Positions 476-20,442 of a stretch of 44,784 nt of DNA are shown piece after piece. The notes under the pieces were generated by a model that did not search any database, had not been told where the DNA came from, and worked only from the letters and a program-made list of their open reading frames with translations. The position numbers and the translations under genes are program-made. The DNA is from a virus: positions 1 through 44,784 of the IMG/VR virus record IMGVR_UViG_3300031951_000329; one strand, given 5' to 3'. The number at the start of each line of letters is the position of its first letter. The first letter of the stretch is position 1.

Positions 476-1645
476 ATGCTGAATTACACAGACTTTTTAA
501 TTGAGACATATGACGTTCAACACAATGCAAAATCCAAAGAAGCATTTCTTATGGCTTGCGCAGTTAAAGGTGGTGCATCACTTGAGGAAAGTGAATCTTT
601 AATGTTCTTTATTAATGAAGGGTTTGTTAATGATCTTTTTGAAACTTGCTTATCTGTAAACGAAGAAAGTTTTGCTGAAAAGTTTAAAGCACTCGCTGCT
701 GCGGCAAAAGAAAAGATTAAAGAAAAAGGAAAAGAATACGCAGACAAACTTGGCGCAAAATCTCAAGCAGCATTAAAATTTGGTGGACAAATCTTATCAC
801 CGCTTAAAGCTGTCTTAGGTAAAATTAAAGAAATTTTAGCTAAAGCGTGGGAAATGACAAAAGATGCTGCTCGCTCTTCTGTTGAAAAAGCAAAAGAAAA
901 GATTAAAGAAAAGATTAAACCGTATCTTAAAGATTCAGATAAAAGAAAAAAGATTTCTGAAGAAATCAAAAATTTATCTGCTATGGGAACTGCTGTTGCA
1001 ACTTGGGCATCGGGTGGATTTCCTAGTACATTAGCTAAAGCCAGTCAAACTGCCGCTACTACAGAAGAATCATATGATTACCTTGCTGCGTTTGAGTCAG
1101 CTTTTTATTATGCAGCAGCTGAAACGCTAAACGAAAACTATACCATAGATGAAATACTTGCAGAGTGTAAACTTTTTGAAAGTGAACACGGCGAAGCAAA
1201 AGGTGGATTACAGATTCCATTCATTTCGTCAATTATGAATAAACTTGCACACATGCCGCCTTTCTCGGTGTTCCATAAGATTGAAGCTAAAGTTTCTAAA
1301 GCAGCGGACACAGGATTGGAAAGAATGTCAATACTTGCTACTAAAATTGCTGGAGCACCTGGACCGTTTAAATTTCCTGTAGTTGCTGGAATAGTTGGAA
1401 TTGCTGCTGGATATCTTGCAGAGACAACATTTAAAAGTGGTATTATTAGCTTACAGGATTTAGCGGCAAAAGGACTTGGGTTTGCTATTCCAGGATTTGG
1501 TATGGCAATTAAGTTTATGAAATACGGAGGTCTTGCTTTAGCAATTTACGGAGTTTTAAACGAACTTGTTGGCGGTGAAGGTAAAGATAAGAAAGAAGAA
1601 ACCGAACCTAAAGAAGAAACCAAGAAAGATGAAGAAACTAATTAA
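476..1645 (+). CDS. Putative internal head protein with T4-type capsid-targeting N-terminus and hydrophobic C-terminal half
   Basis: The 389-aa protein begins MLNYTDFLIETYD. This fits the pattern of the T4 internal-protein capsid-targeting sequence (MKTYQEFIAE), with a likely gp21-type cleavage after LIE. Residues 70-170 are a long Lys/Glu/Ala-rich amphipathic helix region (repeated KEKIKEKGK-like runs). Residues about 299-365 contain two hydrophobic Gly/Ala-rich segments that could insert into or cross a membrane, and the tail is highly charged (KKEETEPKEETKK). The family is not recognised. A packaged, possibly DNA-ejection-associated or membrane-active protein is an inference from the targeting motif plus the hydrophobic segments. 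The 3' end overlaps the next CTS gene by 17 nt. Confidence 0.85.
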   Translation: MLNYTDFLIETYDVQHNAKSKEAFLMACAVKGGASLEESESLMFFINEGFVNDLFETCLSVNEESFAEKFKALAAAAKEKIKEKGKEYADKLGAKSQAALKFGGQILSPLKAVLGKIKEILAKAWEMTKDAARSSVEKAKEKIKEKIKPYLKDSDKRKKISEEIKNLSAMGTAVATWASGGFPSTLAKASQTAATTEESYDYLAAFESAFYYAAAETLNENYTIDEILAECKLFESEHGEAKGGLQIPFISSIMNKLAHMPPFSVFHKIEAKVSKAADTGLERMSILATKIAGAPGPFKFPVVAGIVGIAAGYLAETTFKSGIISLQDLAAKGLGFAIPGFGMAIKFMKYGGLALAIYGVLNELVGGEGKDKKEETEPKEETKKDEETN

Positions 1646-1817
1646 AACATACGAAGAATTTATTGGAGATGAAACTACCGATAAATTAAAGGCTCAAGCA
1701 TTAGCCCAAGCTGCTGAAGACGGTGATGTTGATTACTTTGCTGGCCCCGAAAGCGGTGAAGATAGTACATCAGGATCTGATGATAGCGATAGTTCAGGCA
1801 ACGAAATGGGTATATAA
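1629..1817 (+). CDS. Small acidic CTS-type internal head protein
   Basis: The 62-aa protein begins MKKLIKTYEEFIGDE, the closest match in the window to the T4 internal-protein targeting peptide MKTYQEFIAE. I chose the ATG at 1629 rather than the upstream in-frame ATG at 1566. It places the motif at the extreme N-terminus, follows an A-rich leader (CAAGAAAG), and the longer version would lie deep inside the preceding gene in another frame. After the presumed cleavage site only about 50 residues remain, ending in an acidic, Ser/Gly-rich disordered tail (GEDSTSGSDDSDSSG). The mature product could be a very acidic peptide inside the head. The gene overlaps its upstream neighbour by 17 nt. Confidence 0.75.
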   Translation: MKKLIKTYEEFIGDETTDKLKAQALAQAAEDGDVDYFAGPESGEDSTSGSDDSDSSGNEMGI

Positions 1818-1819
1818 AA
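1811..1819 (+). promoter_or_regulatory. Putative late promoter box TATATAAAA
   Basis: TATATAAAA overlaps the stop codon of the preceding gene and lies 25 nt before the ATG at 1836. Its spacing and sequence match the other boxes in the window. Confidence 0.4.
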
Positions 1820-1835
1820 AATAAGTAAATACAAA

Positions 1836-2159
1836 ATGGGAGTAATTAAAAATTTTAGCGACTTCGTTAAAGAAACCGAAACTTTAGGTTCTGACGAAAT
1901 TAAAGCAACAAAACCAACTGCATTATCTGAAGCATTATGTGAAAAGTTAAAAAGCTGTATGGAAATGGCAATGGCTGAATGTAACGAATGGCATAATGAT
2001 GAAAACACAGATCATACAGCGGATGGATATCTTTCTGAGTGTGACTCTTACATGAAAGAATGTATGGAAGGACTTAGATCAAGCTGTGAAGGACTTATGA
2101 ATATGCCAGATGCCCCAGATGGAGATATGCGTCAAGGAAACACACAAGATTTAAACTAA
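1836..2159 (+). CDS. Cys/Met-rich CTS-type internal head protein
   Basis: The 107-aa protein starts MGVIKNFSDFVKETE, the shared targeting motif with likely cleavage after VKE. The body is predicted by eye to be helical and carries six cysteines (residues 35, 41, 49, 69, 76, 84), many Met residues and two His (53, 60). The arrangement C-x6-M/A-rich-C, then a short acidic loop, then C-x6-C-x7-C, looks like a helical hairpin with Cys on facing sides. That could bind metal or form disulfides, though no family is recognised. It sits between two other CTS genes, ends 1 nt before the next one, and may have its own promoter at 1811. Confidence 0.85.
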   Translation: MGVIKNFSDFVKETETLGSDEIKATKPTALSEALCEKLKSCMEMAMAECNEWHNDENTDHTADGYLSECDSYMKECMEGLRSSCEGLMNMPDAPDGDMRQGNTQDLN

Positions 2160-2160
2160 T

Positions 2161-2502
2161 ATGGCAAAGATTTTAGAGTTTTCAGATTTCGTAACTGAAA
2201 AGAAAAATAAAGGTCTGTGGGCTAACATTCACGCAAAAAGAAAACGCGGTGAAAAACCAGCTAAACCAGGTGATGAAGATTACCCGGATGAAAAGGCGTG
2301 GAAAGCTGCGCAAGAAAGTGAAAATGGAGATCATGAGGTTTCAATGGCAGGTGCTCAATTAGATGACATCATTAAAAATGCTGCTGAGTTAAAAGCAAAG
2401 ATCGGTAATATGGAAATGGACATACCAGCTTGGTGTCAAGATCATATTTCACAAGCACAAAATTTTATAAACCAGGCAAACACTGGGTTTGATGAAAAGT
2501 AA
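2161..2502 (+). CDS. CTS-type internal head protein with basic segment
   Basis: The 113-aa protein begins MAKILEFSDFVTEKK, the capsid-targeting-like motif with likely cleavage after VTE. It is followed by a basic stretch GLWANIHAKRKRGEKPAKPG and then an acidic GDEDYPDEKAW. The C-terminal half is helical and includes IPAWCQDHISQAQNF. As far as I recall, similar aromatic-basic 'NIHAKR..GE' and 'W.Q.KIS.A..Y' segments recur in small phage and virion-associated proteins, but I cannot verify this here. The basic patch just after the presumed cleavage site would suit DNA contact in the head. The start is one base after the preceding stop codon. Confidence 0.85.
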   Translation: MAKILEFSDFVTEKKNKGLWANIHAKRKRGEKPAKPGDEDYPDEKAWKAAQESENGDHEVSMAGAQLDDIIKNAAELKAKIGNMEMDIPAWCQDHISQAQNFINQANTGFDEK

Positions 2503-2520
2503 CATTTTAAAACAATCAAT

Positions 2521-2742
2521 ATGAATCACTGGACAGTAAGAGTACGTGTGACAACTGAGGATTTAGACTCAGGAAAATTAAGAGCAAGAGTAGAAACATA
2601 TCTTATTCAAGCAGAAACAATAGAAGCAGCACAAACACTAGTTCGTGAATACTTCAAAGGAATGACAATGGATCATGAGATCCGCAGCATTAGTGGTAGC
2701 AATATAATTGAATACATTTCAGCTGAAACACTAAACCAATAA
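2521..2742 (+). CDS. DUF4494-like small protein
   Basis: The 73-aa protein MNHWTVRVRVTTED... has the layout of Bacteroidetes DUF4494. There is an N-terminal strand with W/F (HWTVRVR), a 'Gk...rvetYLIQAETIEAAQ' centre in which an Ala-Glu helix follows the YL strand, and a closing strand near IIEYIS. DUF4494 has no known function and is found mostly in Bacteroidetes and their phages, so it supports the host inference. The match is made by eye. It lacks the CTS motif of its neighbours and lies 18 nt after them with an A-rich leader. Confidence 0.65.
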   Translation: MNHWTVRVRVTTEDLDSGKLRARVETYLIQAETIEAAQTLVREYFKGMTMDHEIRSISGSNIIEYISAETLNQ

Positions 2743-2757
2743 GAACCGTTTATAGGA

Positions 2758-2829
2758 ATGAAACACATTAGTACATTTGAATCTTTATTAGTGTTTAATC
2801 CACAAAAGAATCTGCATATAGTAAAGTAA
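2758..2829 (+). pseudogene. 23-residue CTS-like mini-ORF, probable remnant
   Basis: An ATG at 2758 opens a 23-codon frame whose first residues, MKHISTFESLLVFN, match the start of the CTS proteins at 19879 (MKHIKLYEDYINE) and 20200 (MKHIQSYESFLNE). It lacks the Glu cleavage residue and stops after 23 residues, shortly before a terminator. It may be the decayed 5' end of a lost internal-protein gene, or an expressed free targeting peptide. Confidence 0.4.
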
Positions 2830-2864
2830 ATGAATTATTAAAGCAAATTGTTAATAACTTTAGT

Positions 2865-2892
2865 CCCGCAAATTTTTATTTGTGGGTTTTTT
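2865..2892 (+). terminator. Rho-independent terminator
   Basis: The stem CCCGCAAA (2865-2872) pairs with TTTGTGGG (2879-2886) with one G-T wobble. The loop is T-rich and six Ts follow at 2887-2892. It closes the internal-protein cluster and lies inside the 5' extension of the next open frame, which is one reason to start that gene at 2931. Confidence 0.85.
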
Positions 2893-2930
2893 GTATTAAT
2901 TTTAACTATCAATTTAAAACTATACACAAT

Positions 2931-3251
2931 ATGAAATCAATGCAAGATTACTTAGAGCAAGACGGAAACATCGGATTTAACATTTCAATCTATAATCGTT
3001 TCTCTACTATTGGTGATTCTTCATACGCTAGTATCTGCGGAGGATTTATTGACGGTGTCTATCAATGGGCAGATCATAACATTGATGATGTAACCGAAGT
3101 GTCTAATCATAAATACACCGGCTGGATTATTCTGTTTAGTTCGGGTGCTGAGCGCCGAGTGTATATTCCTAACTGGGTTATGGATGTTAAACCAAGAGAT
3201 TGGAAACATGCCAAAAACTTGTTTAACAAGTATCTTCAAGTTAAACAATAA
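2931..3251 (+). CDS. Hypothetical protein, 106 aa
   Basis: The open frame extends upstream to an ATG near 2880, but that start would sit inside the terminator hairpin. I therefore use the ATG at 2931, preceded by ACTATACACAAT. The product begins MKSMQDYLEQDGNIGF and is rich in aromatic residues and beta-like strands (SYASICGGFIDGVYQW, GWIILFSSGAERRVYIPNW). It has no signal peptide or membrane segment, and I do not recognise the family. It stands alone between a terminator and the PD-(D/E)XK-like gene. Confidence 0.75.
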   Translation: MKSMQDYLEQDGNIGFNISIYNRFSTIGDSSYASICGGFIDGVYQWADHNIDDVTEVSNHKYTGWIILFSSGAERRVYIPNWVMDVKPRDWKHAKNLFNKYLQVKQ

Positions 3252-3303
3252 GCAATATAAATGACATTAAAGCAACTTTAATTTACCTTAAAATATTATA
3301 CCT

Positions 3304-4743
3304 ATGAGTATTAATAAGTTTCACGAGATTACTTTAGAAGGCACTAACATTTACCTTAAGAAGCCTTACAGTAATAAAAAAGTTATACTCGGTGTATTGG
3401 ATCTTAACGATGAACGCTATGTAGAAAAACTAAATGCTATCAAAAACGTTCTTTGTGAAGATCGCTTCAATGATATTCTTGAAATCATTTATGATCGTCT
3501 ACCACCTTCTGCAAGAAACGCCGGAACCAAAGTAATTAGCCGCTTAATTAAAGTGTTCTATAATGGCGGTTTGGAAAATCTTGACATGGTAACGGATATG
3601 ATTAAAAATCCTGCATACATTTCTGCAGAATCTTTAAGTGGTGAACCTGTAGATATCATATCGGTTTTGGCAAATCATTATAACTTTTTTGCGCCGGAGT
3701 TCTTTGAGGAATTATTTAAAGAACAGCCTGGAGATATGGGTCCAAGTGAATTAATGTTCTCATGTTTCACTACTTTCCAAAAAGGGTCCAAAGGTGATCT
3801 TTGGGATCCTGTTACTGAAAGAGGTATTGAAGTAAAAGGTAAAATGGGTAGGCTTGCTGGTATTGGGAAGGTTGCCAATGGTTTAGATGCTTTGGATAAA
3901 CTCAACAAGATGTTTAACATTGACGTGGATTTTCGTACGCTATCTTCTTCATATCTTAAGGCATACATATATCCACTTATTAAAGACGGAATATCATATG
4001 CTGATGCTGAGAAGTTTATCATGGCATTATCACAACACCCAGAAACATTCCTTACTTATAAAAATGAATTAATCACAAGAGTTCATAATGGGATAAGAAA
4101 TAAGGAAGAACTCTCTAACATATTTCTTGCAGTTCAAATACTAAACTATTACGATTATTCTGGCTTTGATGATTTGCTAATCTTTGGTGATGGTAAAGAT
4201 GAAAATCCAAAATGTAAACTGTTTAAGATTAATGGTGCTACTCTTGATGAAATCTTGGAGTACGGCAAAATCATATCTTACTCCGGTTGGGGTGTAGGTC
4301 AAGAAACTTCTATAGGTGTAAGTATTCGTAAATCTGACTGGTTACAGATTGAAATTAGCAAATACGGTAGGATGACAAAAGCTGAACGTGAAGCATACAT
4401 TAAAGAATACCCAGAGATGCTTGATTATTCTGATGAATTAGAAAAATCTGTTGAATTAGAAAAAGAAAAACAGCGTGCAGCATCTCGAGCTCAAATGGAA
4501 AGGATTAAAGCAGATCCTGTTCTACTTGCTAAGTACCGAGAAAAGCAAAGAGCTCAGTCTGCTGCTTTAAAAGCAAAAATTTACGCAGACCCGGTTTTAC
4601 TTGCAGAGTACCGTAAAAAACAACGGGAACAATCAGCAGCAGCCAAGGCTAGACTTATGGCAGATCCTGTTAAGTGGGAAGCACATAAAGCAAAACAACG
4701 TGAGGCATCTCGTAAAAAGAAAGAAAGAAAAACTAATTCATAA
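3304..4743 (+). CDS. PD-(D/E)XK-like protein with basic 25-residue C-terminal repeats
   Basis: The 479-aa protein has a candidate restriction-endonuclease-fold core at residues 149-183: E149, then GSKGDL with D165, then GIEVKG with E176 and K178, i.e. an E...D...E-x-K arrangement. The surrounding region (residues 1-385) is mostly helical and unrecognised. From residue 389 to the end there are three and a half copies of a 25-residue Lys/Arg/Ala-rich unit (KQRAxSAAxKAxxxADPVLL...), likely helical and basic enough to bind nucleic acid. A nuclease acting on DNA is a reasonable inference but unproven; the motif could also be a degenerate, structural version. An isolated ATTATACCT precedes the ATG. 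Confidence 0.85.
   Translation: MSINKFHEITLEGTNIYLKKPYSNKKVILGVLDLNDERYVEKLNAIKNVLCEDRFNDILEIIYDRLPPSARNAGTKVISRLIKVFYNGGLENLDMVTDMIKNPAYISAESLSGEPVDIISVLANHYNFFAPEFFEELFKEQPGDMGPSELMFSCFTTFQKGSKGDLWDPVTERGIEVKGKMGRLAGIGKVANGLDALDKLNKMFNIDVDFRTLSSSYLKAYIYPLIKDGISYADAEKFIMALSQHPETFLTYKNELITRVHNGIRNKEELSNIFLAVQILNYYDYSGFDDLLIFGDGKDENPKCKLFKINGATLDEILEYGKIISYSGWGVGQETSIGVSIRKSDWLQIEISKYGRMTKAEREAYIKEYPEMLDYSDELEKSVELEKEKQRAASRAQMERIKADPVLLAKYREKQRAQSAALKAKIYADPVLLAEYRKKQREQSAAAKARLMADPVKWEAHKAKQREASRKKKERKTNS
4468..4740 (+). repeat. Tandem repeat encoding 25-residue basic units
   Basis: Codons 389-479 of the preceding gene encode units starting KQRAASRAQM, KQRAQSAALK, KQREQSAAAK and a partial KQREASRKKK, with ADPV at the same place in each full unit. 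The period is 75 nt. The DNA copies have diverged more than the protein copies, so the repeat is kept by selection or is old. Confidence 0.9.
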
Positions 4744-4780
4744 CTTTTTTATGACGAAAAACTATCTTACACTTGGTGAA

Positions 4781-4789
4781 TATAAATAA
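4781..4789 (+). promoter_or_regulatory. Putative late promoter box TATAAATAA
   Basis: This site contains TATAAATA exactly, the T4 late promoter consensus, 27 nt before the ATG at 4808 in a 64-nt intergenic gap. Confidence 0.55.
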
Positions 4790-4807
4790 AACAAAAAATA
4801 TACTATT

Positions 4808-5038
4808 ATGTCAGAAAATACTGAAAACATAATCCCAGAAGTTGTTAATGAATGGGATAGCGTGATTATCCAAATTAATAATGGAGAAGATGGCGCCGGA
4901 GCAATTCGTATGATGAAACAAGATATTGATGCTCTTATGGAATTACATGGTGAAAGTAGAGGAACAATTTTAGACATGTGTCTATTAGCTGTTGAGACTA
5001 CTCCAAAAGAAAACTTTGCACAACCTGAAGAAAAGTAA
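4808..5038 (+). CDS. Hypothetical protein, 76 aa
   Basis: This small acidic protein (MSENTENIIPEVVNEWDSV...) appears to have two helices and no Cys-based motif, signal peptide or membrane segment. It is the first gene after the best promoter-like box in the window and is followed after 3 nt by the gene at 5042, so it probably heads an operon running to about 5368 or further. The family is not recognised. Confidence 0.75.
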   Translation: MSENTENIIPEVVNEWDSVIIQINNGEDGAGAIRMMKQDIDALMELHGESRGTILDMCLLAVETTPKENFAQPEEK

Positions 5039-5041
5039 GAA

Positions 5042-5368
5042 ATGCCATTTCATCAAGATTTTGGAGAACTATACGGCAAAGGGCAAATGTCCGTTAACCC
5101 TTACGGTTGGACACCTTTGGAAGTTGAGTACGGTTATAAAGATATTGCCCGTCAGAAGAATTTCTTTTGGCGAGTTAAAGGAACTCAACATACGTTCAGA
5201 ATACCTCTTACTTCTTTAAATGAATTTTCACACGGAGACTATGAACATCATATCGAATATGTTTTGGAAAATTTTAGGCAAGAGTACCTCTCGTGGGCAG
5301 CACAAGGATTCCCAGTTGAGTGGATGGCCGAATACCACCGAGAATATAGAAACTACCTTGAAATCTAG
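5042..5368 (+). CDS. Hypothetical protein, 108 aa
   Basis: The product is aromatic-rich (MPFHQDFGELYGKGQ, EVEYGYKDIARQKNFFWRVKG, EYHREYRNYLEI) with Trp, Tyr and His spread along its length and no membrane segment. The start at 5042 follows the preceding stop by 3 nt with leader GTAAGAA. Two overlapping frames across 4992-5393 lack this regular spacing and are treated as spurious. The function is unknown. Its position before the gp-type structural genes suggests a late or virion role, but nothing in the sequence proves it. Confidence 0.7.
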   Translation: MPFHQDFGELYGKGQMSVNPYGWTPLEVEYGYKDIARQKNFFWRVKGTQHTFRIPLTSLNEFSHGDYEHHIEYVLENFRQEYLSWAAQGFPVEWMAEYHREYRNYLEI

Positions 5369-5373
5369 TGAAA

Positions 5374-5382
5374 TATATACTA
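5374..5382 (+). promoter_or_regulatory. Putative late promoter box TATATACTA
   Basis: TATATACTA lies 20 nt before the ATG at 5394, in the short gap after the 5042 gene. It is closely similar to TATATACTT (7281) and TATATACAA (17113). Confidence 0.45.
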
Positions 5383-5393
5383 AAACAAATAAT

Positions 5394-5969
5394 ATGAGTC
5401 TTAAAACATATCAGTGGATCAAAGGTGAAAAAGCCGGTGATGTTGTAAAATCTGATGGTGCAATTATTAATGATGAAGGAGTTGATTTTATTATTTTTAC
5501 TGATGGCAGTAGATGTAATAGCAATCTTTTAGGTGATTATATAATAGAAGTTCTTAATGATAATCCAGAGAATCTTTTTATGCTTAATGACCTTTCGCCA
5601 GAACCTTTGCGCAAGATAACGTCTAACGAAATACCACAAGCGCCGCCAACACCCGCTAAGCCAACACAAACTATAGCACCGGTTGTTAGTCCATTAGAAG
5701 CATTACTTACTACGTCTAAGAAAACTGAAAAGACAGTTAAAGTGTCATTAAAAATTAATGTTCCACCTTTTGATTTAATTAAAGTTTTGGCAGCATCTTT
5801 TGATGATGGACAAGATCAAGTTCTTAGCTATTTACAAAATAGTATAACACCAGAAATGGTTGAAAACTTGAAAAGACAAATTGCAATAGAACTAACTTCT
5901 GATATCTTTGAAATTCCAGAGAACATTGAAGAACCACAAGAAAATTTAGAAAATTATGAAAGAGTTTAA
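5394..5969 (+). CDS. Hypothetical protein, 191 aa, with Pro-rich linker
   Basis: The frame extends upstream to an ATG at 5220, but that part overlaps the gene at 5042. The ATG at 5394 follows a promoter-like box and the A-rich leader ACAAATAAT, so I use it. The protein (MSLKTYQWIKGEKAGD...) has an N-terminal beta-rich domain, a linker near residues 80-97 (PQAPPTPAKPTQT), and a helical C-terminal part with acidic end (PENIEEPQENLENYE). No family is recognised. Its last 14 nt overlap the Nudix gene, so the two are probably translated together. Confidence 0.7.
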   Translation: MSLKTYQWIKGEKAGDVVKSDGAIINDEGVDFIIFTDGSRCNSNLLGDYIIEVLNDNPENLFMLNDLSPEPLRKITSNEIPQAPPTPAKPTQTIAPVVSPLEALLTTSKKTEKTVKVSLKINVPPFDLIKVLAASFDDGQDQVLSYLQNSITPEMVENLKRQIAIELTSDIFEIPENIEEPQENLENYERV

Positions 5970-6498: not shown

Positions 6499-6817
6499 CA
6501 GAAGACAAAGAAGAGAGCTTGAGAAAAAAGCTGGTCTATTAAAAATTTATCAAAATATGTCTGAGGCAGATAAAGCGGAGTTACGAAAAAGACGCGCTGC
6601 ATCAGGAAAACAAATACATTTACAAAATGTTCAGGCTCGTGAGCAATATGAAATGGAACAAGAAACACTTCGTTATACCAAAATGATTGAGCGTTTTCAA
6701 TCTGAAGGCATGAATGACGAAGAAGCAACAGCTGCTGCAGATGCAATACTTAAAGCTGAACAAGATCGTTGGGAAAAGAAACACACAAAAAGAGTCCCAC
6801 TTCAAGAAAACGAATAA
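6491..6817 (+). CDS. Hypothetical highly charged helical protein, 108 aa
   Basis: The sequence (MYNRRQRRELEKKAGL...) is almost entirely helix-forming Lys, Arg, Glu, Gln and Ala with very few aromatics or Gly. This suggests a single long helix or coiled coil. The N-terminus is strongly basic and the C-terminus mixed. The start overlaps the Nudix stop by 8 nt and the stop codon abuts the next ATG. The family is not recognised; an assembly chaperone or scaffold-like role would be a guess. Confidence 0.75.
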   Translation: MYNRRQRRELEKKAGLLKIYQNMSEADKAELRKRRAASGKQIHLQNVQAREQYEMEQETLRYTKMIERFQSEGMNDEEATAAADAILKAEQDRWEKKHTKRVPLQENE

Positions 6818-7249: not shown

Positions 7250-7280
7250 ACTCCTATTACCTTAGATTTTGCTTGTATGA

Positions 7281-7308: not shown

Positions 7309-7326
7309 AGAAAATCATTTAAGCAA

Positions 7327-9459: not shown

Positions 9460-9470
9460 AAATCTTAATT

Positions 9471-11644: not shown

Positions 11645-11659
11645 AAATAATAATGACCC

Positions 11660-13600
11660 ATGCAATACGCAGATAGTGTAACCAAATCTTTTTTAACGTA
11701 CGGTAATCCTTCAACGGTTACATTACCGCCTGGTTCTATGTCAGATTGGCAAGATCCTACTTACATGGGATTTCAGATAAGATTAGTGACTAGCCTAAAT
11801 AATGAAGTTGACTTAGATGATATGCCGCACGGACTTTTCTGTGGAACTTATAGTCAAAAAGATAAAGAAAACGCTAGTCAATATACACACAGTAACAAAT
11901 ACTCTACATATAACTACTTAATTAATCGTGGTGAATATAAGAGAGCTGAATACATAAGATTATTTGAAACTGGGTTTGGTACATTACTTAATGAATGTCC
12001 TTGGTATTTTGTAAAAGTATCAGGACTTGCAGATGCTTGGAAAATTGATTCTAAGAATAACTGGAGAGGTAAAGATAAAAAAATTACGGTAGAAACACTA
12101 GAATCTATTGATATGAAAATGACATATCTAATAGACTGTTATCGTAAAGCAGTATTTGATGCAAATTGGATGAGATGGGCTGTGCCAGATCATATGCGTT
12201 GGTTTAAAATGGATATCATTATTAGTGAAGTTCGTCCTATGAAAATTGGTAAAGTTGCTGAAGAGACAACCAATAATCCTGGGCCTGACACATCTACAGA
12301 GCCATCAACAAAATTAGGAAAACTTGCAAAGAAAGTAGGTACTTCGGTACAGCAAAAAGCAACATCAGCATTAGCTGATGTCGCGGCAAGTGCTGGTTTA
12401 ACTTTAGGCCCGGGTACACCTCGTGAATATGGATTGGTTACAGATAAAACACCAGAGCCTTGGTCAGCTGCTACTTTTATAAAGTTTTCATTTGAACACT
12501 GTGAAATTGATTTAACTGAAGCTCCGCCATATTTAGATACGGTAGGGATCATAGGTGACACCGTTGCCTCTAATAAGTTTGTAATTAAAACGGGAGTTAT
12601 TCGCGAGAGTAATACATACGGTCTTCTTGGAGCAATTCTTGACGATACATTAACATGGGACGCGTATGGTAAAGATGCAGCAAAAGAAGCTAAAGTTATA
12701 AATTTCCAAACTGCTAAAGATACTGCCGCAATACCAAGTTCTTACGAAGTTAATCCAACAAGAGCTGATACACAAAAAGCATTTGATTCCGCAAACGGGA
12801 AACCTAATTCAGGTGGTCTTTTAAGTCAGATAGGCCAGAAGGCACTTTCTGGAATAACAGCGGCTGCAACGGATCTTATTAAGAATGCTGTGAATGGTTT
12901 CTTATTAGGAAATGTATATAATGCGTCTCCACTTGGATTATTTAATGCTGCACAAGGTATTCTGAATAATCCAACCGGGGCAGTAGAAGGTTTATTAAGA
13001 AGACAAAGTAGTCCAGGTATTGCTGCTATGATGGCAAAGAAAGTAGAACTTACAGGTGCGGAAATAAACTTGGTTAAAACTCTTATTGGGCAGACTACAT
13101 TAGAAAGCGCAGCACCGGAATTAAATAGCCCGGGTAATGTTGGATTAGTGGGAGCTGTTAACCCACCAGAAACTTTAGGCAAAGAAAGTTTAACTTCTCC
13201 AGATACTCAAACAACTCCGCCGGGGAAAGTTGTATTATCAGCTGTGCCTTCAGATAATACAACTTTAGGTAGTACTACATTTGAGTTACCAAATATAAAT
13301 ACTGGAGGCGCGAGTAAAGTTGATTTATCAGGTCCTGAAATACCAGCGGCTAGTCCACAGAAAACAAACTTGGAGGCATTTGCGTCTGCAGGCATACCTT
13401 CTTCTAGAGCTAATCTTACGGCTCCTAATAAAAAGGTAGCAACACAGCAGAATGTTAGTCTTGAAGGTGCCACTGTTACTACAAGTGATCTTGGAGAGGC
13501 TGATTTAACAGGCGCACCTGCGGAAACTGCTACATTAGGAAAAGCTGATTTAACCGCAGCACTTGTACCACCAACCACATTAGGAAAAGCTGATTTATAA
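11660..13600 (+). CDS. Tail tube-initiator-like protein with exact 15-residue C-terminal repeats
   Basis: In this 646-aa protein, residues 1-200 and 265-300 have tube-protein features (DPTYMGFQIRLVTSLNNE, then WFKMDIIISEVRPMKIG and FIKFSFEHCEIDLTEAPPY). These suggest a gp48/gp54- or gp19-like domain with an inserted Ala/Gly/Lys-rich loop. From about residue 470 to the last residue a 15-residue repeat runs in strict register, best copies TTLGKADLTAALVPP. The gene lies between the gp27-like hub and the gp5-like spike. The start at 11660 (leader AATGACCC) was preferred because the ATG seven bases upstream leads to a stop after a few codons. Its TAA overlaps the spike ATG by one base. Confidence 0.75.
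   Translation: MQYADSVTKSFLTYGNPSTVTLPPGSMSDWQDPTYMGFQIRLVTSLNNEVDLDDMPHGLFCGTYSQKDKENASQYTHSNKYSTYNYLINRGEYKRAEYIRLFETGFGTLLNECPWYFVKVSGLADAWKIDSKNNWRGKDKKITVETLESIDMKMTYLIDCYRKAVFDANWMRWAVPDHMRWFKMDIIISEVRPMKIGKVAEETTNNPGPDTSTEPSTKLGKLAKKVGTSVQQKATSALADVAASAGLTLGPGTPREYGLVTDKTPEPWSAATFIKFSFEHCEIDLTEAPPYLDTVGIIGDTVASNKFVIKTGVIRESNTYGLLGAILDDTLTWDAYGKDAAKEAKVINFQTAKDTAAIPSSYEVNPTRADTQKAFDSANGKPNSGGLLSQIGQKALSGITAAATDLIKNAVNGFLLGNVYNASPLGLFNAAQGILNNPTGAVEGLLRRQSSPGIAAMMAKKVELTGAEINLVKTLIGQTTLESAAPELNSPGNVGLVGAVNPPETLGKESLTSPDTQTTPPGKVVLSAVPSDNTTLGSTTFELPNINTGGASKVDLSGPEIPAASPQKTNLEAFASAGIPSSRANLTAPNKKVATQQNVSLEGATVTTSDLGEADLTGAPAETATLGKADLTAALVPPTTLGKADL
13100..13597 (+). repeat. Array of twelve 15-residue (45-nt) protein repeats
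   Basis: A hydrophobic residue preceded by a two-residue A-D/V-D/A-N-like step recurs at residues 481, 496, 511, 526, 541 (Phe), 556, 571, 586, 601, 616, 631 and 646. The spacing is exactly 15 residues with no insertion or deletion. The last three units (GEADLTGA, GKADLTAA, GKADL) are nearly identical. The protein ends on the key Leu of the last unit. Confidence 0.9.
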
Positions 13601-14379: not shown

Positions 14380-14388
14380 TCATGAAAC

Positions 14389-17079
14389 ATGGCAGATCTA
14401 TCACCAGCAGCTCAAGCAATAGTTGAAGCACTAAAATCTAAAGCAAAAGTTATAGACGGAGTTCCCTACATGCCCACTGGGTTTGAAGGTAAATCTGCGT
14501 CTGAACTTTTAGACGCAGTGAATGCTTCATATACTAAAATTGGAAAAGCAACTGTAGGTTCAAATAAAAATGCAGCTGGTTTAGGTGGAGGCGCAACTCG
14601 TAGCAATGCGGTTATACCAACAGATATTACGGCAGCACCATCGTCAACAACAAATATTCTTCCAAATTATTCTAAAGAAGAAATTGAAGAAGTTGCTAAG
14701 GAAGCTGTTCAAGAATGTGAAATTCGCAAAGCAGTTCCTAACATTTTAAATAACGTTCAGTTATCTGAAGCTATTGATGCAAAGTGTGATATTAAACCAC
14801 CTGTGCCATTCTTACCTGCTGAATTTTTACCTGACACTCCAGTTGAGTTAAAGCCAGAACCTGAGCCAGAAGATTCTTTAGCACCTCCTAAATATACGCT
14901 TGTCACATTGGTTAATCTTGATGGATTAACTGCAAACGGAAATGAATATGCTGAAATAAAAGTTCTTAAGAATGATGGTGATAAAGTTTCTTGTGGAGAA
15001 ACTATCATGGAAGTTGGTGGAATAGCTGTTACTTGTCCTATAGTTGATGGGACAGTTAAAAAAATAATCACCAAAGAAAAAGCTGTTAAGTTTAGCCAGC
15101 TATTTGTAGTAGAAGAACCTAATCCAGTAGATACATCGAAAAAAGTTTTTGCTGAAGCTGATAATCTTAAAAAGAAGATTGATGAAATGATTCTTCTTAA
15201 AGAAAGATTAGGAGTACTTGAGCCACAAGTATGGCACTCAAAAATTATCTGGGGAATCTTTGAAGGCCAGTACCAAGGATACATTGCATATTATCAAAAA
15301 TTTAATGATCTTATAACTCAAAGAAATACTCTTAATGATGAGTTTATTGAAAATAGAAAGAAATTAGAAGATCTTTTTTATACGTATACTTATACTACTA
15401 CATCACAATCAAAAGCGGATCTTGTTGCAGCTATAACTACAAGAACTGAAAAGTTTATCTTACCTAATGATTATAACAGTAATAAGAAAAAACAAATTAC
15501 TGAATTACTTGCAAGACAGGCTGAACTTGTTACATTAATAGGTAATGTTACATCACAACTTGATGCTGTAAGAGCTGAACAGCCTACTTATTTTGCATTA
15601 GATAAGACTAAAGAAATTAATGCAAGTGTTACTTCTGTCCCGTTTACAAAAGGTGTTAAAGGATCACAATACACAATCATACCATTTAAGTCAGGTGATA
15701 AAATATCTTCTCCGTATATTGACATATTAAAAGGATTACCTGCTATTATAGAGCCTTTTACTAATAACATATTATTGGCAGGTAGATACTTTAATAGGTG
15801 GAGTGATATTCCTAATCCTTTACAACCAAATGTTCATTTTGATATTAATCAAAAAGGAATCTTTTCTTATAACACATTAATTAGAGTAGAAACTTCACCA
15901 ACTGATTATGATTTTGAAGTTAAAGGAGGTATTCGTAGATGGTCAGGAAGTATGTGGAAAACCCGATACGATTTCTTTAACACAGCAACAGCAGTTTCTA
16001 AAGGTATTAAACCGTCAGATGATCCTGATGAAGTAACGCAAAAGACAGGTGATTTAAGTTTACAAGAAAGAGCGTTACCTGCGGTAATAGAAAAACTTGC
16101 TACCGATAATTATAATGCGGTTGTAGAATACTGTAAGAACTTTGGTTACTATTTATTAAATGATGGTTCAATATTCATACAAAACGGCAAGAATAAAACT
16201 ACTGAACTTGATAAGAAACGCAAAGATGCACAAGCGGCATTTGATAAACTTCATGATGAATATGCGGCTATTCGTAAAAAAATAGTAGAAACAGAGATAT
16301 ACATAGACTCATTTCCAAATATCATTAAAAACATAACTACAAGTGGTTGTGGAATGGTAGGCGGTGGTCCTGCATCAGTTGGTAAGTATGAAGGTAAGAA
16401 AGCTAAAATCATTCCTTGGCCGTTTAGTGATGGTGGGGGTGGTGCTGGTGCTGGTGTCCCAGGTGATAATGATAAAGAAAACGGAAACCCAGACCCTAAT
16501 TCTCCGCCATCAACATCTCTTGCATATTGGAAAAAATATTGTAAGCGAGCAACTACGGTTAACTTGCTTCCTACATACTGGCCTATCGGTATTATTATAC
16601 CTACACCAAGTGGATTAATTAAGATACCTTTTCCTATTATCTGGACACCGCTTGCAGTTATTCCGTCGGATCTTGCACTAATTGTGATAGGAATAACAAT
16701 GTGCGGTATTTGCCCAGGACCTTTTATCTATATAGTAAACCCGGGTTGGCCGTTTCCTATAGGAATGGTTAAAGCAAAAGAATCTTGGTTTGTGGTAGGA
16801 AATCGTGGACCAAAAAATATTGATTCTATTACTACATCTGAAGTTTCTGCGCTTGACATACCTACAGTTAACATACCGTTAAAATACACAAAGAATGGAC
16901 AGACTGTTAAGACTAATGTCAAAATTAACGTGGGACCTATTGTAACTCAACTTTTACCTTTTATACAAGATGATTTACCTGTGTATGAAAGATTAACCAT
17001 GACAAATGTTGTCTACTTATTATATCTTGCAAAATGGTGCAAGCAAGGAAAAAACACATACGGATTCTTTACAAGTTAG
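14389..17079 (+). CDS. Large spike/baseplate-associated protein with lipoyl-type domain and hydrophobic C-terminal region
   Basis: This 896-aa protein follows the spike gene by 9 nt. Residues about 187-243 read as a biotinyl/lipoyl-type barrel: NDGDKVSCGETIMEVGG, then VTCPIVDGTVKKIITKEKAV and LFVVEE. The lysine that would be modified in EAMKM is absent (EVGGIAVT), so the domain should be purely structural. Pro/Glu-rich linkers flank it. Residues about 250-420 and 605-650 are coiled-coil-like. A Gly-rich stretch (SDGGGGAGAGVPGD) leads to a hydrophobic Pro/Ile-rich region at about 723-793 (PIGIIIPTPSGLIKIPFPII, then LALIVIGITMCGICPGPFIY), which could interact with a membrane. The family is not recognised. 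A role in the spike or envelope penetration is inferred from position and hydrophobicity. Confidence 0.75.
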   Translation: MADLSPAAQAIVEALKSKAKVIDGVPYMPTGFEGKSASELLDAVNASYTKIGKATVGSNKNAAGLGGGATRSNAVIPTDITAAPSSTTNILPNYSKEEIEEVAKEAVQECEIRKAVPNILNNVQLSEAIDAKCDIKPPVPFLPAEFLPDTPVELKPEPEPEDSLAPPKYTLVTLVNLDGLTANGNEYAEIKVLKNDGDKVSCGETIMEVGGIAVTCPIVDGTVKKIITKEKAVKFSQLFVVEEPNPVDTSKKVFAEADNLKKKIDEMILLKERLGVLEPQVWHSKIIWGIFEGQYQGYIAYYQKFNDLITQRNTLNDEFIENRKKLEDLFYTYTYTTTSQSKADLVAAITTRTEKFILPNDYNSNKKKQITELLARQAELVTLIGNVTSQLDAVRAEQPTYFALDKTKEINASVTSVPFTKGVKGSQYTIIPFKSGDKISSPYIDILKGLPAIIEPFTNNILLAGRYFNRWSDIPNPLQPNVHFDINQKGIFSYNTLIRVETSPTDYDFEVKGGIRRWSGSMWKTRYDFFNTATAVSKGIKPSDDPDEVTQKTGDLSLQERALPAVIEKLATDNYNAVVEYCKNFGYYLLNDGSIFIQNGKNKTTELDKKRKDAQAAFDKLHDEYAAIRKKIVETEIYIDSFPNIIKNITTSGCGMVGGGPASVGKYEGKKAKIIPWPFSDGGGGAGAGVPGDNDKENGNPDPNSPPSTSLAYWKKYCKRATTVNLLPTYWPIGIIIPTPSGLIKIPFPIIWTPLAVIPSDLALIVIGITMCGICPGPFIYIVNPGWPFPIGMVKAKESWFVVGNRGPKNIDSITTSEVSALDIPTVNIPLKYTKNGQTVKTNVKINVGPIVTQLLPFIQDDLPVYERLTMTNVVYLLYLAKWCKQGKNTYGFFTS

Positions 17080-17112
17080 AGTCCTTAAAAATATATGATC
17101 AAACATCGCGGA

Positions 17113-17121
17113 TATATACAA
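17113..17121 (+). promoter_or_regulatory. Putative late promoter box TATATACAA
   Basis: TATATACAA lies 20 nt before the ATG at 17133 in a 53-nt gap and matches the boxes at 5374 and 7281. It supports placing the start of the S1-domain gene at 17133. Confidence 0.45.
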
Positions 17122-17132
17122 AAAGCAAAAAT

Positions 17133-18338
17133 ATGGAACTAAAAAAACAAGACGAAATTTTCGATGACAACTATTGGGCACTCCTTGCAACAAATGGCAA
17201 GTTAGTACCAAATGCGAAATTAAGTAGTAAAGCAGGCAATGCTGTTTATTGCCACGAATCATACGCTGAAGATTTATTGGCGGTGTATCAAGGAATGACT
17301 GAAACGGCAAATAAAGAGCCGAAAGTAGGTGAAGTTTATAAACTTGTAGATGTAAGAGTCGGTGTTAACCGTGAACTATACGTTACACTTACAGGTTTTA
17401 TTGATGCAACAGTTAATCTGGAGCAAGAGAAGAAATTCCTAGCAATGTTAGGAATGACTGAAGAAGAATTGGTAGAGAGTTTAAAAACCGAAGACGGTAA
17501 AAAACATTTCTGTGCTAATCAGTATCATGTAAGAGTTGAGATGATTAAACCTTATGTTAAGGTATCTCTTTATGAAGGGCAGCTTTCTCATATCAAAGAA
17601 GATTTCTTTGGGCAGATTGGAAAACCTACAACAGCTTACTATGGAACTATTACAGGTAAGAACCAAGGTGGATTTATTATTGCGGTTCAAGGTATTAATG
17701 GTTTCCTTCCTGGATCTCTTGCGGCAGCTAATGTGGTACGAGACTTTGATAGTATGATTGGTAAAACAGTTCCAGTGATGGTTGAAGATTATCTTACAGA
17801 GAGTAGTACATTCGTATTCTCTTATAAGAAATATCTTGCTTATGTTCTTCCAACAAAAATTGAAGAACTTGACCTTGATGCAAAATACACAGGGACAGTT
17901 ACAGGTATTGCAAAATATGGTATCTTTGTTGAGTTTGATGAAATCTTTACAGGATTACTTCATAGCAGTAAAATGTCTGCGGCTCTTAAAGAATCGTTTA
18001 AGAACTTTGAGTTTAAACCTGGAGATACGGTTGACTTCTGGATTAGAGAGATTACGCCAGATAAGAAAATCATTTTATCTGATGAAGATCCTTCATTCCG
18101 TAGAAAAGAACTTGAAGAATTTAAAGATCAAAACGTTGGAATTATTCGCAGCGGGGAAGTGGTGTCAATTCAACCATTTGGTGCACTAATTAAAATCCAA
18201 AAAGATATGGTTGGTCTTATTTCCCAAAAGGAAATTAAAATGAAAAAGAAACGATTCAATGTAGGTGATGAAGTTATGGTCACTATTGAAAGAGTTGCTA
18301 ACGATAAAATTTTCTTAACATTACCAAGCGAATCGTAA
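17133..18338 (+). CDS. Multi-S1-domain RNA-binding protein (ribosomal protein S1-like)
   Basis: This 401-aa protein carries three recognisable S1 OB-fold domains. Residues 167-232 read YYGTITGKNQGGFIIAVQGI with GFLPGS; residues 250-317 read YTGTVTGIAKYGIFVEFDE with GLLHSSKM; residues 338-398 read GEVVSIQPFGALIKIQKDM with GLISQKEI. Residues 65-150 may be a degenerate fourth. Bacterial S1 brings mRNA to the 30S subunit through A/U-rich leaders. A phage-borne version could favour its own A-rich, Shine-Dalgarno-less mRNAs, or act elsewhere in RNA metabolism. The start at 17133 was chosen over one at 17034 because the latter lies inside the previous gene, whereas 17133 follows a promoter-like box. 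Confidence 0.9.
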   Translation: MELKKQDEIFDDNYWALLATNGKLVPNAKLSSKAGNAVYCHESYAEDLLAVYQGMTETANKEPKVGEVYKLVDVRVGVNRELYVTLTGFIDATVNLEQEKKFLAMLGMTEEELVESLKTEDGKKHFCANQYHVRVEMIKPYVKVSLYEGQLSHIKEDFFGQIGKPTTAYYGTITGKNQGGFIIAVQGINGFLPGSLAAANVVRDFDSMIGKTVPVMVEDYLTESSTFVFSYKKYLAYVLPTKIEELDLDAKYTGTVTGIAKYGIFVEFDEIFTGLLHSSKMSAALKESFKNFEFKPGDTVDFWIREITPDKKIILSDEDPSFRRKELEEFKDQNVGIIRSGEVVSIQPFGALIKIQKDMVGLISQKEIKMKKKRFNVGDEVMVTIERVANDKIFLTLPSES

Positions 18339-18339
18339 G

Positions 18340-18480
18340 ATGGCTGAATGTCCAAGATGTAAAACTAGTTTAGGTTGCTCATGTCAACTTAAGAATGCAT
18401 CAGACGGAACTGAAGTATGTGAAGAATGTATAGAAAATTACGAATTAAAATTAAAGGCAAAGAAACGCAATGAAAGTTAA
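18340..18480 (+). CDS. 46-aa zinc-binding miniprotein
   Basis: The product begins MAECPRCKTSLGCSCQLKNA and continues to a basic helix ending KAKKRNES. Six cysteines are arranged C4-x2-C7-x5-C13-x-C15-x11-C27-x2-C30, the layout of a zinc ribbon or knuckle pair. The ATG directly follows the S1 gene stop (TAAG-ATG), and the end overlaps the next gene by 11 nt, which argues that it is translated in this operon. Its partner and role are unknown; a small nucleic-acid- or protein-binding accessory is possible. Confidence 0.8.
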   Translation: MAECPRCKTSLGCSCQLKNASDGTEVCEECIENYELKLKAKKRNES

Positions 18481-19876
18481 AAAGTCTTATACCGAAGCTG
18501 AAATCCTTGACGCCGGAAAGATTGGATATGAATTTGAGTTTTATTCAAATTTATCCATTGAAAAGACCGCTCGTGGATTAGCCAAGTATATCCAAAAGAG
18601 GGTGGTTATTCCTATGGCACTTAGTAACATACAAAAGCCTAAACCTCTTTATCATTCGCCAATCACGCCTACTGCTGATATCTTTAAACTAGAGCCTGAT
18701 TATTCAGGAGGTAAAAATATGATGGAACTTGTTACGGGCCCTATGTCTTATAAAGATGCCCGTAATGTTCTAATCAAAGTTTTTGAGTGGATTAAAGATA
18801 ACGGATACACAAATGAAAGATGCTCTATACATGCTAACATTAGTATAGATCCTAATAAGTTACCTACGCTAGTAAATATTCCTCAAATGAATGTTGCCAA
18901 ATTCATACTTGATTTTGATGAAGGTAGAATTTACGATGTATTCCCACAAAGAAAAGATTCCGTTTATGCAAGAAGTATAAAAAATCTTAGACCTAATAAG
19001 GTTATGTTTTATTCTCCTTCTTTAGAAGAGTTTAGTCGTTCAACTATGGCAATACCTGATGAAAAGTATTTTGGGGTGAACTTTACAAAGTTGGAAAAAG
19101 GATACTTAGAATACAGATATATGGGAGGTAAAGATTATCATACTAAGGCTCGTAAGATTCTTAGTCTTGTTGATTATTACATCTTACATATGTTTAGTGT
19201 TTTAAACTTTAATGGTCAATATTCACAAGTTGACCGAGCTAAGTTTAAGAGCATGATGGAAAAACAAGAAATCATATACAAATCATTTATTAAATACGGA
19301 GAGTTTAAAAAGAACTATCCTGACATTGAGCTTTCAATGGATATGATTAAAGATGATCAAACTCTATCTGCTGTTTGGGGTAATCTACGAGAAAAACTAT
19401 TTGATCTTGTAGTTACTGGAGGAATGACTAAAGGTAAATTTAATTATGATACTGATTTAGGTCGCTTCCAACTTCAAGACACTAAACTAAATAACTGTAA
19501 AGTTGAAGACATTGAGTTTATTAATTGTGAGATCCAAGGTGTTATAGACCGTTCATGGTTTTATAACTGTACTGTAAAGAACTCTAGAATTACAAATTCG
19601 TGGGCTATGAAAGAGAATGTTTTTGAGTTCTCTAAAATTGCTGATACTCCACTTCACGTTACTAATGTATGTAATGACTGTTTCATCGAGAATAAACGTT
19701 TCGTTATTAACTGTGAAGTCAATAAAGGAGTTATTCGTAATGGTGAAATTGGTAAACTTGCAAAAGTTTCAAAAGAAACTATGATTGTTGAACTGATTGA
19801 GCCATCTGAATCTGACGGCGGATTTAAAAGTGAAGAAACAGGAAAGAAAGAAGAAATAAAAAAAGCAAAGAAATAA
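18470..19876 (+). CDS. Amidoligase-like enzyme fused to a pentapeptide-like beta-helix
   Basis: In this 468-aa protein, residues 15-240 carry the signature order of the GCS/GS-like amidoligase family. There is an N-terminal G-Y-E-F-E-F strand (E21, E23), D77 before MMELVTGPM (E86), CSIHANIS (H121), and GYLEYRYMGGKDY (E214, R216). Such enzymes join a carboxylate to an amine using ATP and modify peptides or make small amide products. Residues about 328-395 switch to short repeats (LQDTKLNNCKVEDIEFINCE, then WFYNCTVKNSRITNSW) like a pentapeptide-repeat helix, and the C-terminus is charged (KKEEIKKAKK). Two CTS internal-protein genes follow after 2 nt and 24 nt. The substrate is unknown. The family call is by eye, and an ordinary structural role cannot be excluded. 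Confidence 0.75.
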   Translation: MKVKKSYTEAEILDAGKIGYEFEFYSNLSIEKTARGLAKYIQKRVVIPMALSNIQKPKPLYHSPITPTADIFKLEPDYSGGKNMMELVTGPMSYKDARNVLIKVFEWIKDNGYTNERCSIHANISIDPNKLPTLVNIPQMNVAKFILDFDEGRIYDVFPQRKDSVYARSIKNLRPNKVMFYSPSLEEFSRSTMAIPDEKYFGVNFTKLEKGYLEYRYMGGKDYHTKARKILSLVDYYILHMFSVLNFNGQYSQVDRAKFKSMMEKQEIIYKSFIKYGEFKKNYPDIELSMDMIKDDQTLSAVWGNLREKLFDLVVTGGMTKGKFNYDTDLGRFQLQDTKLNNCKVEDIEFINCEIQGVIDRSWFYNCTVKNSRITNSWAMKENVFEFSKIADTPLHVTNVCNDCFIENKRFVINCEVNKGVIRNGEIGKLAKVSKETMIVELIEPSESDGGFKSEETGKKEEIKKAKK

Positions 19877-19878
19877 AG

Positions 19879-20175
19879 ATGAAACACATTAAACTATATG
19901 AAGACTATATTAATGAGGGTTCTATAAAGCAATTTGATAAAGATGTTGACACTTTAATTAAAAACATCAAAAGTGGTTATGGCTGGATTGAACCAGAATA
20001 CGTAATAGATTCATGGGATAACGTAAGTAATACTATTAGCTTTGAATTAGTTAAAGGTGAAGTTTTAAAAAGATTATTTAATGCTGGTGTTTTATATCAC
20101 TCTTCTGCTAATGGCAAAGAAAAGGGTGCAAAAGTTACATTAAGCGAAATAGGAGCATTAGCGCTAATGCGCTAA
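19879..20175 (+). CDS. CTS-type putative internal head protein, 98 aa
   Basis: The N-terminus MKHIKLYEDYINEGSIKQF matches the targeting motif, with likely cleavage between INE and G. The remaining 84 residues contain a Trp-rich strand region (GYGWIEPEYVIDSWDNV) and a helical end. The family is not recognised beyond the motif. It starts 2 nt after the amidoligase-like gene with leader AAAG. Confidence 0.8.
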   Translation: MKHIKLYEDYINEGSIKQFDKDVDTLIKNIKSGYGWIEPEYVIDSWDNVSNTISFELVKGEVLKRLFNAGVLYHSSANGKEKGAKVTLSEIGALALMR

Positions 20176-20199
20176 CTTATTGTAAATAAAAGAATCAAG

Positions 20200-20442
20200 A
20201 TGAAACATATACAATCGTATGAATCCTTTCTTAACGAAGGATTAGAAGTTAATACTAACAAGTATCAATTTGCGCATGGAAAGAAACCTAATGGTAATGG
20301 GATGTGGGCATTTAAGTTATCTGGGCACCAGATAGAACAAGACGTTTGGGCTCCAAATGCAATGAATTACAACGATGCTGTGAAATGGGCAAAAGAAGAA
20401 GCTAAAAAAATCGGAGCAACTCGTATTGATGTGCTTTCATAA
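20200..20442 (+). CDS. CTS-type putative internal head protein, 80 aa
   Basis: The N-terminus MKHIQSYESFLNEGLEVN matches the targeting motif, with likely cleavage between LNE and G. The mature part (about 66 residues) is compact and Trp-containing (GMWAFKLSGHQIEQDVW) with a final helix-strand unit (WAKEEAKKIGATRIDVLS). It shares its first four residues, MKHI, with the proteins at 19879 and 2758, suggesting duplication of the targeting segment. The function is unknown. Confidence 0.8.
   Translation: MKHIQSYESFLNEGLEVNTNKYQFAHGKKPNGNGMWAFKLSGHQIEQDVWAPNAMNYNDAVKWAKEEAKKIGATRIDVLS

What the first reader, a model, noticed from the sequence alone, without database searches (positions are those of the whole stretch)
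476..20442. A family of otherwise unrelated small proteins sharing a T4-type capsid-targeting and cleavage peptide
Six genes (476, 1629, 1836, 2161, 19879, 20200) begin with the same pattern: hydrophobic residue, x-x, F/Y, S/E/T, D/E, F/Y, V/I/L, x, E. Examples are IKTYEEFIGDE, IKNFSDFVKE, LEFSDFVTE, YTDFLIE, LYEDYINEG and SYESFLNEG. T4 internal proteins start MKTYQEFIAE, and this peptide is cut by the gp21 protease after a (L/I)-x-E site. Seen directly: the shared motif and the unrelated bodies. Inferred: they form a repertoire of proteins packed in the head and delivered with the DNA, which makes each a candidate anti-host or anti-defence effector.
Basis: partly seen in the sequence, partly recalled or inferred. 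Interest (0 to 1): 0.78.

Follow-up and report, generated by a model that had tools for sequence, protein, structure and literature searches.

The report
Phage arsenal sharing a head-packaging tag
This phage and its relatives put one short removable tag, like the one phage T4 uses to load proteins into its head, on dozens of otherwise unrelated small proteins, and in relatives two of the tagged proteins are recognisable blockers of bacterial immune systems, so the tag probably marks weapons injected together with the DNA.

Summary
All six window ORFs start with the leader; about 0.1 is expected by chance. A profile trained on relatives (not on T4 or PAU) finds 15 leaders in the 87.6-kb contig containing this window, 28 in a 126-kb relative and 27 in a 256-kb relative, against 0.1-0.3 in shuffles. 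It also recovers T4 IPII and IPIII and three of five PAU 'internal capsid proteins' (P=2e-4). Conservation peaks at the residues T4 needs for targeting and processing, and stops at the predicted cut. A Peptidase_S77 prohead protease lies beside the major capsid gene in relatives; 14 of 16 large leader-bearing records carry one. About 248 unrelated bodies carry the leader. In relatives some are anti-defence families: Tad3 (anti-Thoeris; PDB hit 1.8e-35), with a second cut site just before the Tad3 domain, and an Acb1-like 2H phosphodiesterase. The window's 2161 protein has a tagged homologue in one such array. Best reading: a T4-type capsid-targeting leader expanded into arrays of about 15-30 injected proteins per genome. 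Cleavage, packaging and effector function in this phage remain inferred. Protein 1629 has Asp at the cut site and is probably targeted but not processed.

The parts
476..505 (+). leader MLNYTDFLIE| of ORF 476
   Evidence: PWM score 17.4; leader columns conserved in homologues at 79% and 64% identity
506..1642 (+). body of ORF 476 (379 aa after the leader): Lys/Glu-rich helices, then a Gly-rich hydrophobic C-terminal region; many further L/I-x-E sites (48, 63, 220, 363)
   Evidence: no PHROG family and no Pfam family above cut-off; AlphaFold model uninformative (pLDDT 41)
1629..1673 (+). leader MKKLIKTYEEFIGDE of the 62-aa acidic ORF 1629-1817; P1 is Asp
   Evidence: score 11.3; Asp at this position blocks processing but not targeting in T4 IPIII (PMC9026906)
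1674..1814 (+). body of ORF 1629 (acidic tail)
   Evidence: homologue with the same FIGD leader in G003
1836..1874 (+). leader MGVIKNFSDFVKE| of ORF 1836
   Evidence: PWM 16.0; homologues in G002 and G003 keep a leader, MKHIPTYEQFINE in G002
1875..2156 (+). body of ORF 1836 (94 aa), unknown family
2161..2199 (+). leader MAKILEFSDFVTE| of ORF 2161
   Evidence: PWM 16.4
2200..2499 (+). body of ORF 2161 (KNKGLWANIHAKRKRGEKPAKPGDEDYP domain)
   Evidence: phrog_22379 and phrog_11180; 42% identical, E 5e-27, to leader-bearing L281:24-389:- in a Tad3/Acb1-like array; domain also in T4-like cyanophages
19879..19917 (+). leader MKHIKLYEDYINE| of ORF 19879
   Evidence: PWM 20.5
19918..20172 (+). body of ORF 19879 (85 aa), no family
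20200..20238 (+). leader MKHIQSYESFLNE| of ORF 20200
   Evidence: PWM 23.9
20239..20439 (+). body of ORF 20200 (67 aa), no family; leader-bearing homologue in G002 (78%)

Best explanation
The shared peptide is a capsid-targeting sequence of the T4 internal-protein type. During head assembly the two aromatic residues bind the prohead core, so any protein that carries the leader is enclosed in the prohead. The prohead protease (Peptidase_S77, in these phages fused to a long coiled-coil scaffold-like tail) then cuts after the Glu of (L/I/V)-x-E and releases the body, which stays in the head and enters the cell with the DNA. In this clade the leader has become a general export tag. It is placed in front of roughly 15-30 unrelated proteins per genome, in tandem arrays, and many of these are probably early-acting anti-defence or host-takeover proteins. 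Shown here: the leader, its statistics, the protease and MCP context, and the Tad3 and Acb1-like bodies in relatives. Inferred: packaging, cleavage and injection, and the function of the six window proteins. 476 may instead be a core component, and 1629 is probably packaged without being processed.
For: (1) Statistics: leaders scoring >=8 number 15 vs 0.10 expected (G001, containing the window), 28 vs 0.30 (G002), 10 vs 0.12 (G003) and 32 vs 1.3 (LR756500); scoring >=10, 27 vs 0.15 in the 256-kb G021. (2) Independent recovery: the profile, trained without T4 or PAU, gives T4 IPII and IPIII its top T4 scores. In PAU, 9 hits vs 0.45 expected include gp142, gp154 and gp270, three of the five genes noted 'internal capsid protein' (P=1.9e-4). 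(3) Non-circular test: ORFs chosen only for starting MK[HYF][IVFL] show [FY]7, [FY]10, [LIVM]11, [ED]13 in 31 of 33, and information falls from 3.7 bits at position 13 to below 1 from position 15. These four columns match T4 residues 4 and 7 (targeting) and 8 and 10 (processing) (PMC9026906). (4) Peptide-level selection: Ser in the leader is coded by both AGC/AGT and TCT. (5) Protease: S77 in G003, LR756500, PAU and Lak-A1 and in 14 of 16 large leader-bearing records, adjacent to the MCP. The MCPs start with the same LINE|A/S site and have an L-x-E at about residue 43; PAU MCP has ALME|N at 64, with a reported mature length of 520 of 585 aa. (6) Anti-defence bodies: leader-tagged Tad3 in three records (Pfam 1e-18 to 1e-22; PDB 9b7d 1.8e-35) with a second SINE|G site just before the Tad3 homology, and leader-tagged Acb1-like 2H proteins with both HxT motifs. 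(7) T4 Ip1-3 block GmrSD restriction (PMC12373910).
Against: No virion proteomics was found for this phage or its near relatives. The basis of the PAU 'internal capsid protein' notes is not given in the record. The window and G001 contain no protease; it comes from relatives. 1629 has Asp at P1. Most bodies have no recognisable family, and none of the six window bodies is a known anti-defence protein. Some relatives that have S77 (PTm1, Lak-A1) show no enrichment of this leader. Secondary [LIV]NE sites are enriched only about 2-3 fold.
Confidence: 0.85

Rival explanations
1. The leader is a real targeting and cleavage signal, but most carriers are head-core or morphogenesis proteins (like T4 gp67/gp68) that are processed and discarded or that shape the large head, not injected effectors.
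For: A leader gene sits between portal and protease in G021, where T4 has gp67/gp68. The PAU scaffold gp152 begins with a leader-like peptide. ORF 476 has many internal L/I-x-E sites and is conserved in relatives.
Against: About 248 unrelated bodies, variable between close relatives, including NTases, GNAT, a polynucleotide 3' phosphatase, a metallopeptidase-VWA protein, Tad3 and Acb1-like proteins, are not expected of core proteins.
Confidence: 0.12
2. The leader is a targeting or assembly tag for another place, such as a phage replication compartment or membrane, and its likeness to the T4 CTS is convergent.
For: No direct packaging data were found for this clade.
Against: The conserved columns equal the T4 targeting and processing residues; conservation ends at a protease-type Glu that is also used in the MCP; PAU internal capsid proteins carry it.
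Confidence: 0.03
3. Chance or a shared 5' recombination or translation-start module produced the common start.
For: The genes are tandemly arrayed, so spread by recombination at the shared 5' end is plausible as the way bodies are exchanged.
Against: Large excess over shuffles; synonymous codon differences, including Ser AGC versus TCT; conservation restricted to specific residues that match the T4 functional ones.
Confidence: 0.01

Closest known systems
T4 internal proteins IPI, IPII, IPIII (and Alt) with the capsid-targeting sequence cut by gp21
   Same: N-terminal leader of about 10-14 residues, aromatic-x-x-aromatic-(I/L)-x-E, followed by unrelated bodies; S77 protease; bodies that block host defence (Ip1-3 vs GmrSD, PMC12373910)
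   Different: T4 has three or four leader carriers in a few loci. Here there are about 15-30 per genome in long arrays, many with enzyme or immune-evasion domains; the leader consensus is MKHIxxFExFxNE; the protease is fused to a long coiled-coil tail
Sphingomonas phage PAU internal capsid proteins
   Same: Leader MKTxxxLYExKLNE in most of 9 genes, several beside protease, scaffold and MCP; three noted as internal capsid proteins; distantly related structural genes (26-28% identity)
   Different: Different leader consensus, fewer genes
SPN3US / phiKZ ejection proteins
   Same: Giant phages with many processed, ejected head proteins and gp21-related (S80) proteases cutting after Glu (PMC5694885)
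   Different: Several of their propeptides exceed 100 residues, and no short shared leader of this kind is described there
Tad3 (anti-Thoeris) and Acb1 (anti-CBASS)
   Same: The bodies of some leader proteins in relatives are members (Tad3) or probable members (Acb1-like)
   Different: Here they carry a head-packaging leader; a Tad3 without a leader also occurs (G012)

Membership tests
T4-type capsid-targeting sequence (CTS) | N-terminal leader with two aromatic targeting residues three apart and (I/L)-x-E cut site | tested here: met
   ORF 1629 has Asp at P1, so its processing site is not met
T4-type capsid-targeting sequence (CTS) | profile cross-recognises proven CTS proteins | tested here: met
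   T4 IPII and IPIII recovered by a profile trained without T4
T4-type capsid-targeting sequence (CTS) | prohead protease of the gp21 (Peptidase_S77) family in the same genome | tested here: met
   not in the 44.8-kb window or G001; present together with leader genes and MCP in G003 and G021 and in 14 of 16 large leader-bearing records
T4-type capsid-targeting sequence (CTS) | packaging into the head and removal of the leader | not testable with these tools
   needs virion mass spectrometry; indirect support from PAU notes
T4-type internal proteins | unrelated, variable bodies behind one leader | tested here: met
   73 body clusters in 96 proteins; 248 clusters in 447
T4-type internal proteins | injected anti-defence activity | not testable with these tools
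   Tad3 and Acb1-like bodies in relatives; nothing for the six window bodies
Tad3 (PF25185), relatives only | sequence match above family cut-off and to the solved Tad3 | tested here: met
   L280, L281, L282: 68-77.5 bits vs cut-off 27; 9b7d E 1.8e-35 over nearly its full length (run on L280)
Acb1 / 2H phosphoesterase, relatives only | two HxT/S motifs and family match | tested here: met
   HCT and HMT; Acb1 28.7 bits vs cut-off 27 and 2_5_RNA_ligase2 30.4 vs 27; weak PDB match to 7t26, E 0.016. Acb1-specific activity not tested

The most novel reading that the evidence does not exclude
A widespread clade of large phages has turned a T4-type capsid-targeting leader into a general export tag, and carries a swappable arsenal of about 15-30 virion-delivered counter-immune proteins per genome. 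It includes pre-packaged Thoeris and CBASS inhibitors, released from their leader or linker by the prohead protease, so signalling-based immunity would be disarmed at the moment of DNA entry. The leader can then be used to list hundreds of unknown candidate anti-defence proteins.
Probability: 0.6. Interest if true: 0.87.

Novelty: new variant of a known kind. Interest (0 to 1): 0.74.

Why it matters
T4 has three small proteins delivered this way, and it took decades to learn that they block restriction enzymes. Here the same rule points to hundreds of unrelated proteins in large environmental phages, two of which belong or probably belong to known anti-Thoeris and anti-CBASS families. That suggests immune evasion can be pre-loaded in the particle rather than expressed after infection. 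It gives a sequence-only way to pick unknown candidate anti-defence proteins, and a ready set of packaging tags for delivering proteins into bacteria.

Tried and rejected
AlphaFold2 models of ORF 476 (pLDDT 41) and of the 429-aa ligase-like relative protein (pLDDT 42.5) were too poor to use, so no fold search was run. Pfam and PHROG scans of the six window bodies gave nothing solid but the 2161 domain. The idea that the leader is universal in relatives of this phage was rejected: PTm1, MaF61 and Lak-A1 show no clear excess. The idea that the 429-aa family always carries the leader was rejected: its Microcystis phage homologue is fused to a cytidylyltransferase and lacks it. The cyanophage homologues of 2161 have only a degenerate leader-like start. 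A PADLOC scan of 127 bodies gave mostly weak hits. An ADP-ribosyltransferase-like look of G003 74197 found no support in Pfam or PDB. The enrichment of (L/I/V)xE in general was not seen; only [LIV]NE was enriched.

Full report
OBSERVATION. The six ORFs are present at the stated coordinates with the stated leaders. A regular expression for the leader hits 6 of 42 window ORF starts, against 0.07 expected from its frequency inside proteins and 0.10 in shuffled N-termini. The bodies do not match one another. One of the six, ORF 1629, reads FIGDE, so Asp rather than Glu occupies the position where T4 needs Glu.

WHERE THE WINDOW COMES FROM. The window is an IMG/VR fragment lying at 12,754-57,537 of a second, 87.6-kb record, G001, at 99.99% identity. 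Its neighbours are tail genes: gp5-like hub, head-tail adaptor, gp25-like and gp6-like wedge. The nearest phages in the annotated collection are LR756500 (462 kb), the Lak megaphages and other huge phages, and phages of Tenacibaculum, Flavobacterium, Chryseobacterium and Sphingomonas (PAU).

SCALE. A ten-column profile trained on relatives (not on T4 or PAU) finds, at score >=8, 15 leaders in G001 (0.10 expected from shuffles), 28 in G002 (0.30), 10 in G003 (0.12) and 32 in LR756500 (1.3); PTm1 and MaF61 have none and Lak-A1 has 2 vs 1.0. In G002 most of the consecutive genes between 1.3 and 20.7 kb carry it, and leader genes are adjacent far more often than chance in every genome tested. In the 256-kb record G021 there are 27 at score >=10 (0.15 expected), with a dense array at 193-200 kb. 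Together with the earlier set, 447 distinct bodies fall into 248 clusters.

WHY IT IS A CAPSID-TARGETING LEADER. First, cross-recognition: the T4 ORFs scoring highest are IPII, IPIII and gp61.1. In PAU nine genes score, several beside the protease, scaffold and MCP; three of them (gp142, gp154, gp270) are among only five genes noted 'internal capsid protein', P=1.9e-4. A fourth (gp199) and the scaffold gp152 begin with a related peptide.

Second, a non-circular test: ORFs of G001-G003 selected only for starting MK[HYF][IVFL] have [FY]7, [FY]10, [LIVM]11 and [ED]13 in 31 of 33 cases, and conservation collapses after position 14; in LR756500 the figure is 21 of 40. These columns correspond to T4 IPIII residues 4 and 7 (targeting) and 8 and 10 (processing), where Asp at 10 blocks processing but not targeting (PMC9026906).

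Third, codons vary synonymously, including Ser AGC/AGT versus TCT, so selection is on the peptide.

Fourth, the enzyme: Peptidase_S77 is in G003, LR756500, PAU and Lak-A1, in 14 of 16 large leader-bearing records and in the three records with tagged Tad3. In G021 a leader gene lies between a large ORF in the portal position (portal by position only) and the protease, followed by the MCP. The MCPs start with the same LINE|A/S peptide and have a second L-x-E near residue 43, matching ALME|N at residue 64 of PAU MCP, whose mature form is reported as 520 of 585 aa from N-terminal sequencing (PMC5646251; a cut after E64 would give 521). The protease ORFs of G003 and LR756500 continue into a long coiled-coil-like region with repeated (I/V/L)AE sites, as a self-destroying scaffold would have.

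WHAT THE BODIES ARE. In relatives of the window: a metallopeptidase-VWA protein, CTP-transferase-like, PAP2, LicD, R2K ATP-grasp and DUF5824, polynucleotide 3' phosphatase and GNAT, a polynucleotide-ligase-like 429-aa protein with KTDG and EGITF motifs (by eye), and a DNA-polymerase-beta-like NTase (GSAG...SGDIDLAV, by eye). In the wider set: Tad3, cREC_REC, NUDIX, Zeta toxin, HD, AAA and peptidase C25.

Tad3 carries the leader in three of the four records where it was found. The tagged protein matches solved Tad3 (9b7d) from residue 45 on, and just before that boundary is a second cut site, SINE|G, which would release a bare Tad3. Two genes away in G021 and G022 is a leader-tagged 2H protein over the Acb1 cut-off with both HxT motifs. 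The window's 2161 protein is 42% identical, leader included, to a protein in the G021 array directly beside the Acb1-like gene.

LIMITS. No virion data were found for this clade. The six window bodies have no assigned function. ORF 476, with many internal cut sites and a conserved hydrophobic C-terminus, could be a core or ejection-membrane protein. ORF 1629 is predicted to be targeted but not processed. The PAU notes do not state their basis.

JUDGEMENT. It works like the T4 internal-protein system and meets its testable defining features. It differs in scale, array organisation, leader consensus and the kinds of body. I call it a new variant of a known kind. Literature searches found no report of it in this clade, though the library lacks most subscription papers.

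Noticed in passing
T4 NC_000866 18966-19130 (-), gene 61.1 (L286): T4 gp61.1 (54 aa, hypothetical, next to 61.2) starts MKTFKEFIKE, a perfect leader by the profile; a possible further T4 internal protein.
   Followed up: partly
L279 (G012) 1492-2085: A Tad3 without the head leader exists in a leader-bearing phage, so the same inhibitor occurs both tagged and untagged.
   Followed up: partly
LR756500 13446, 14298, 180972, 198758, 313382, 331856: A paralogous leucine-rich-repeat family, repeatedly leader-tagged, within one genome.
   Followed up: partly
window 33292-33735 (-): Looks like a SET-domain protein by eye (GWGVFTYETI...NHS...GEQLTVNYG).
   Followed up: no
window 18470-19876: Weak Amidoligase_2 match joined to pentapeptide repeats, directly upstream of the second leader pair.
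   Followed up: no
window 11660-13600: C-terminal region matches designed beta-solenoid / pentapeptide-repeat proteins in the PDB.
   Followed up: no
window 3304-4743: ORF with a restriction-like EVKG stretch and C-terminal tandem ADPVLLAxYRxKQR repeats, next to the leader array.
   Followed up: no
window 23530-30390: 2286-aa ORF between tail genes; not examined.
   Followed up: no
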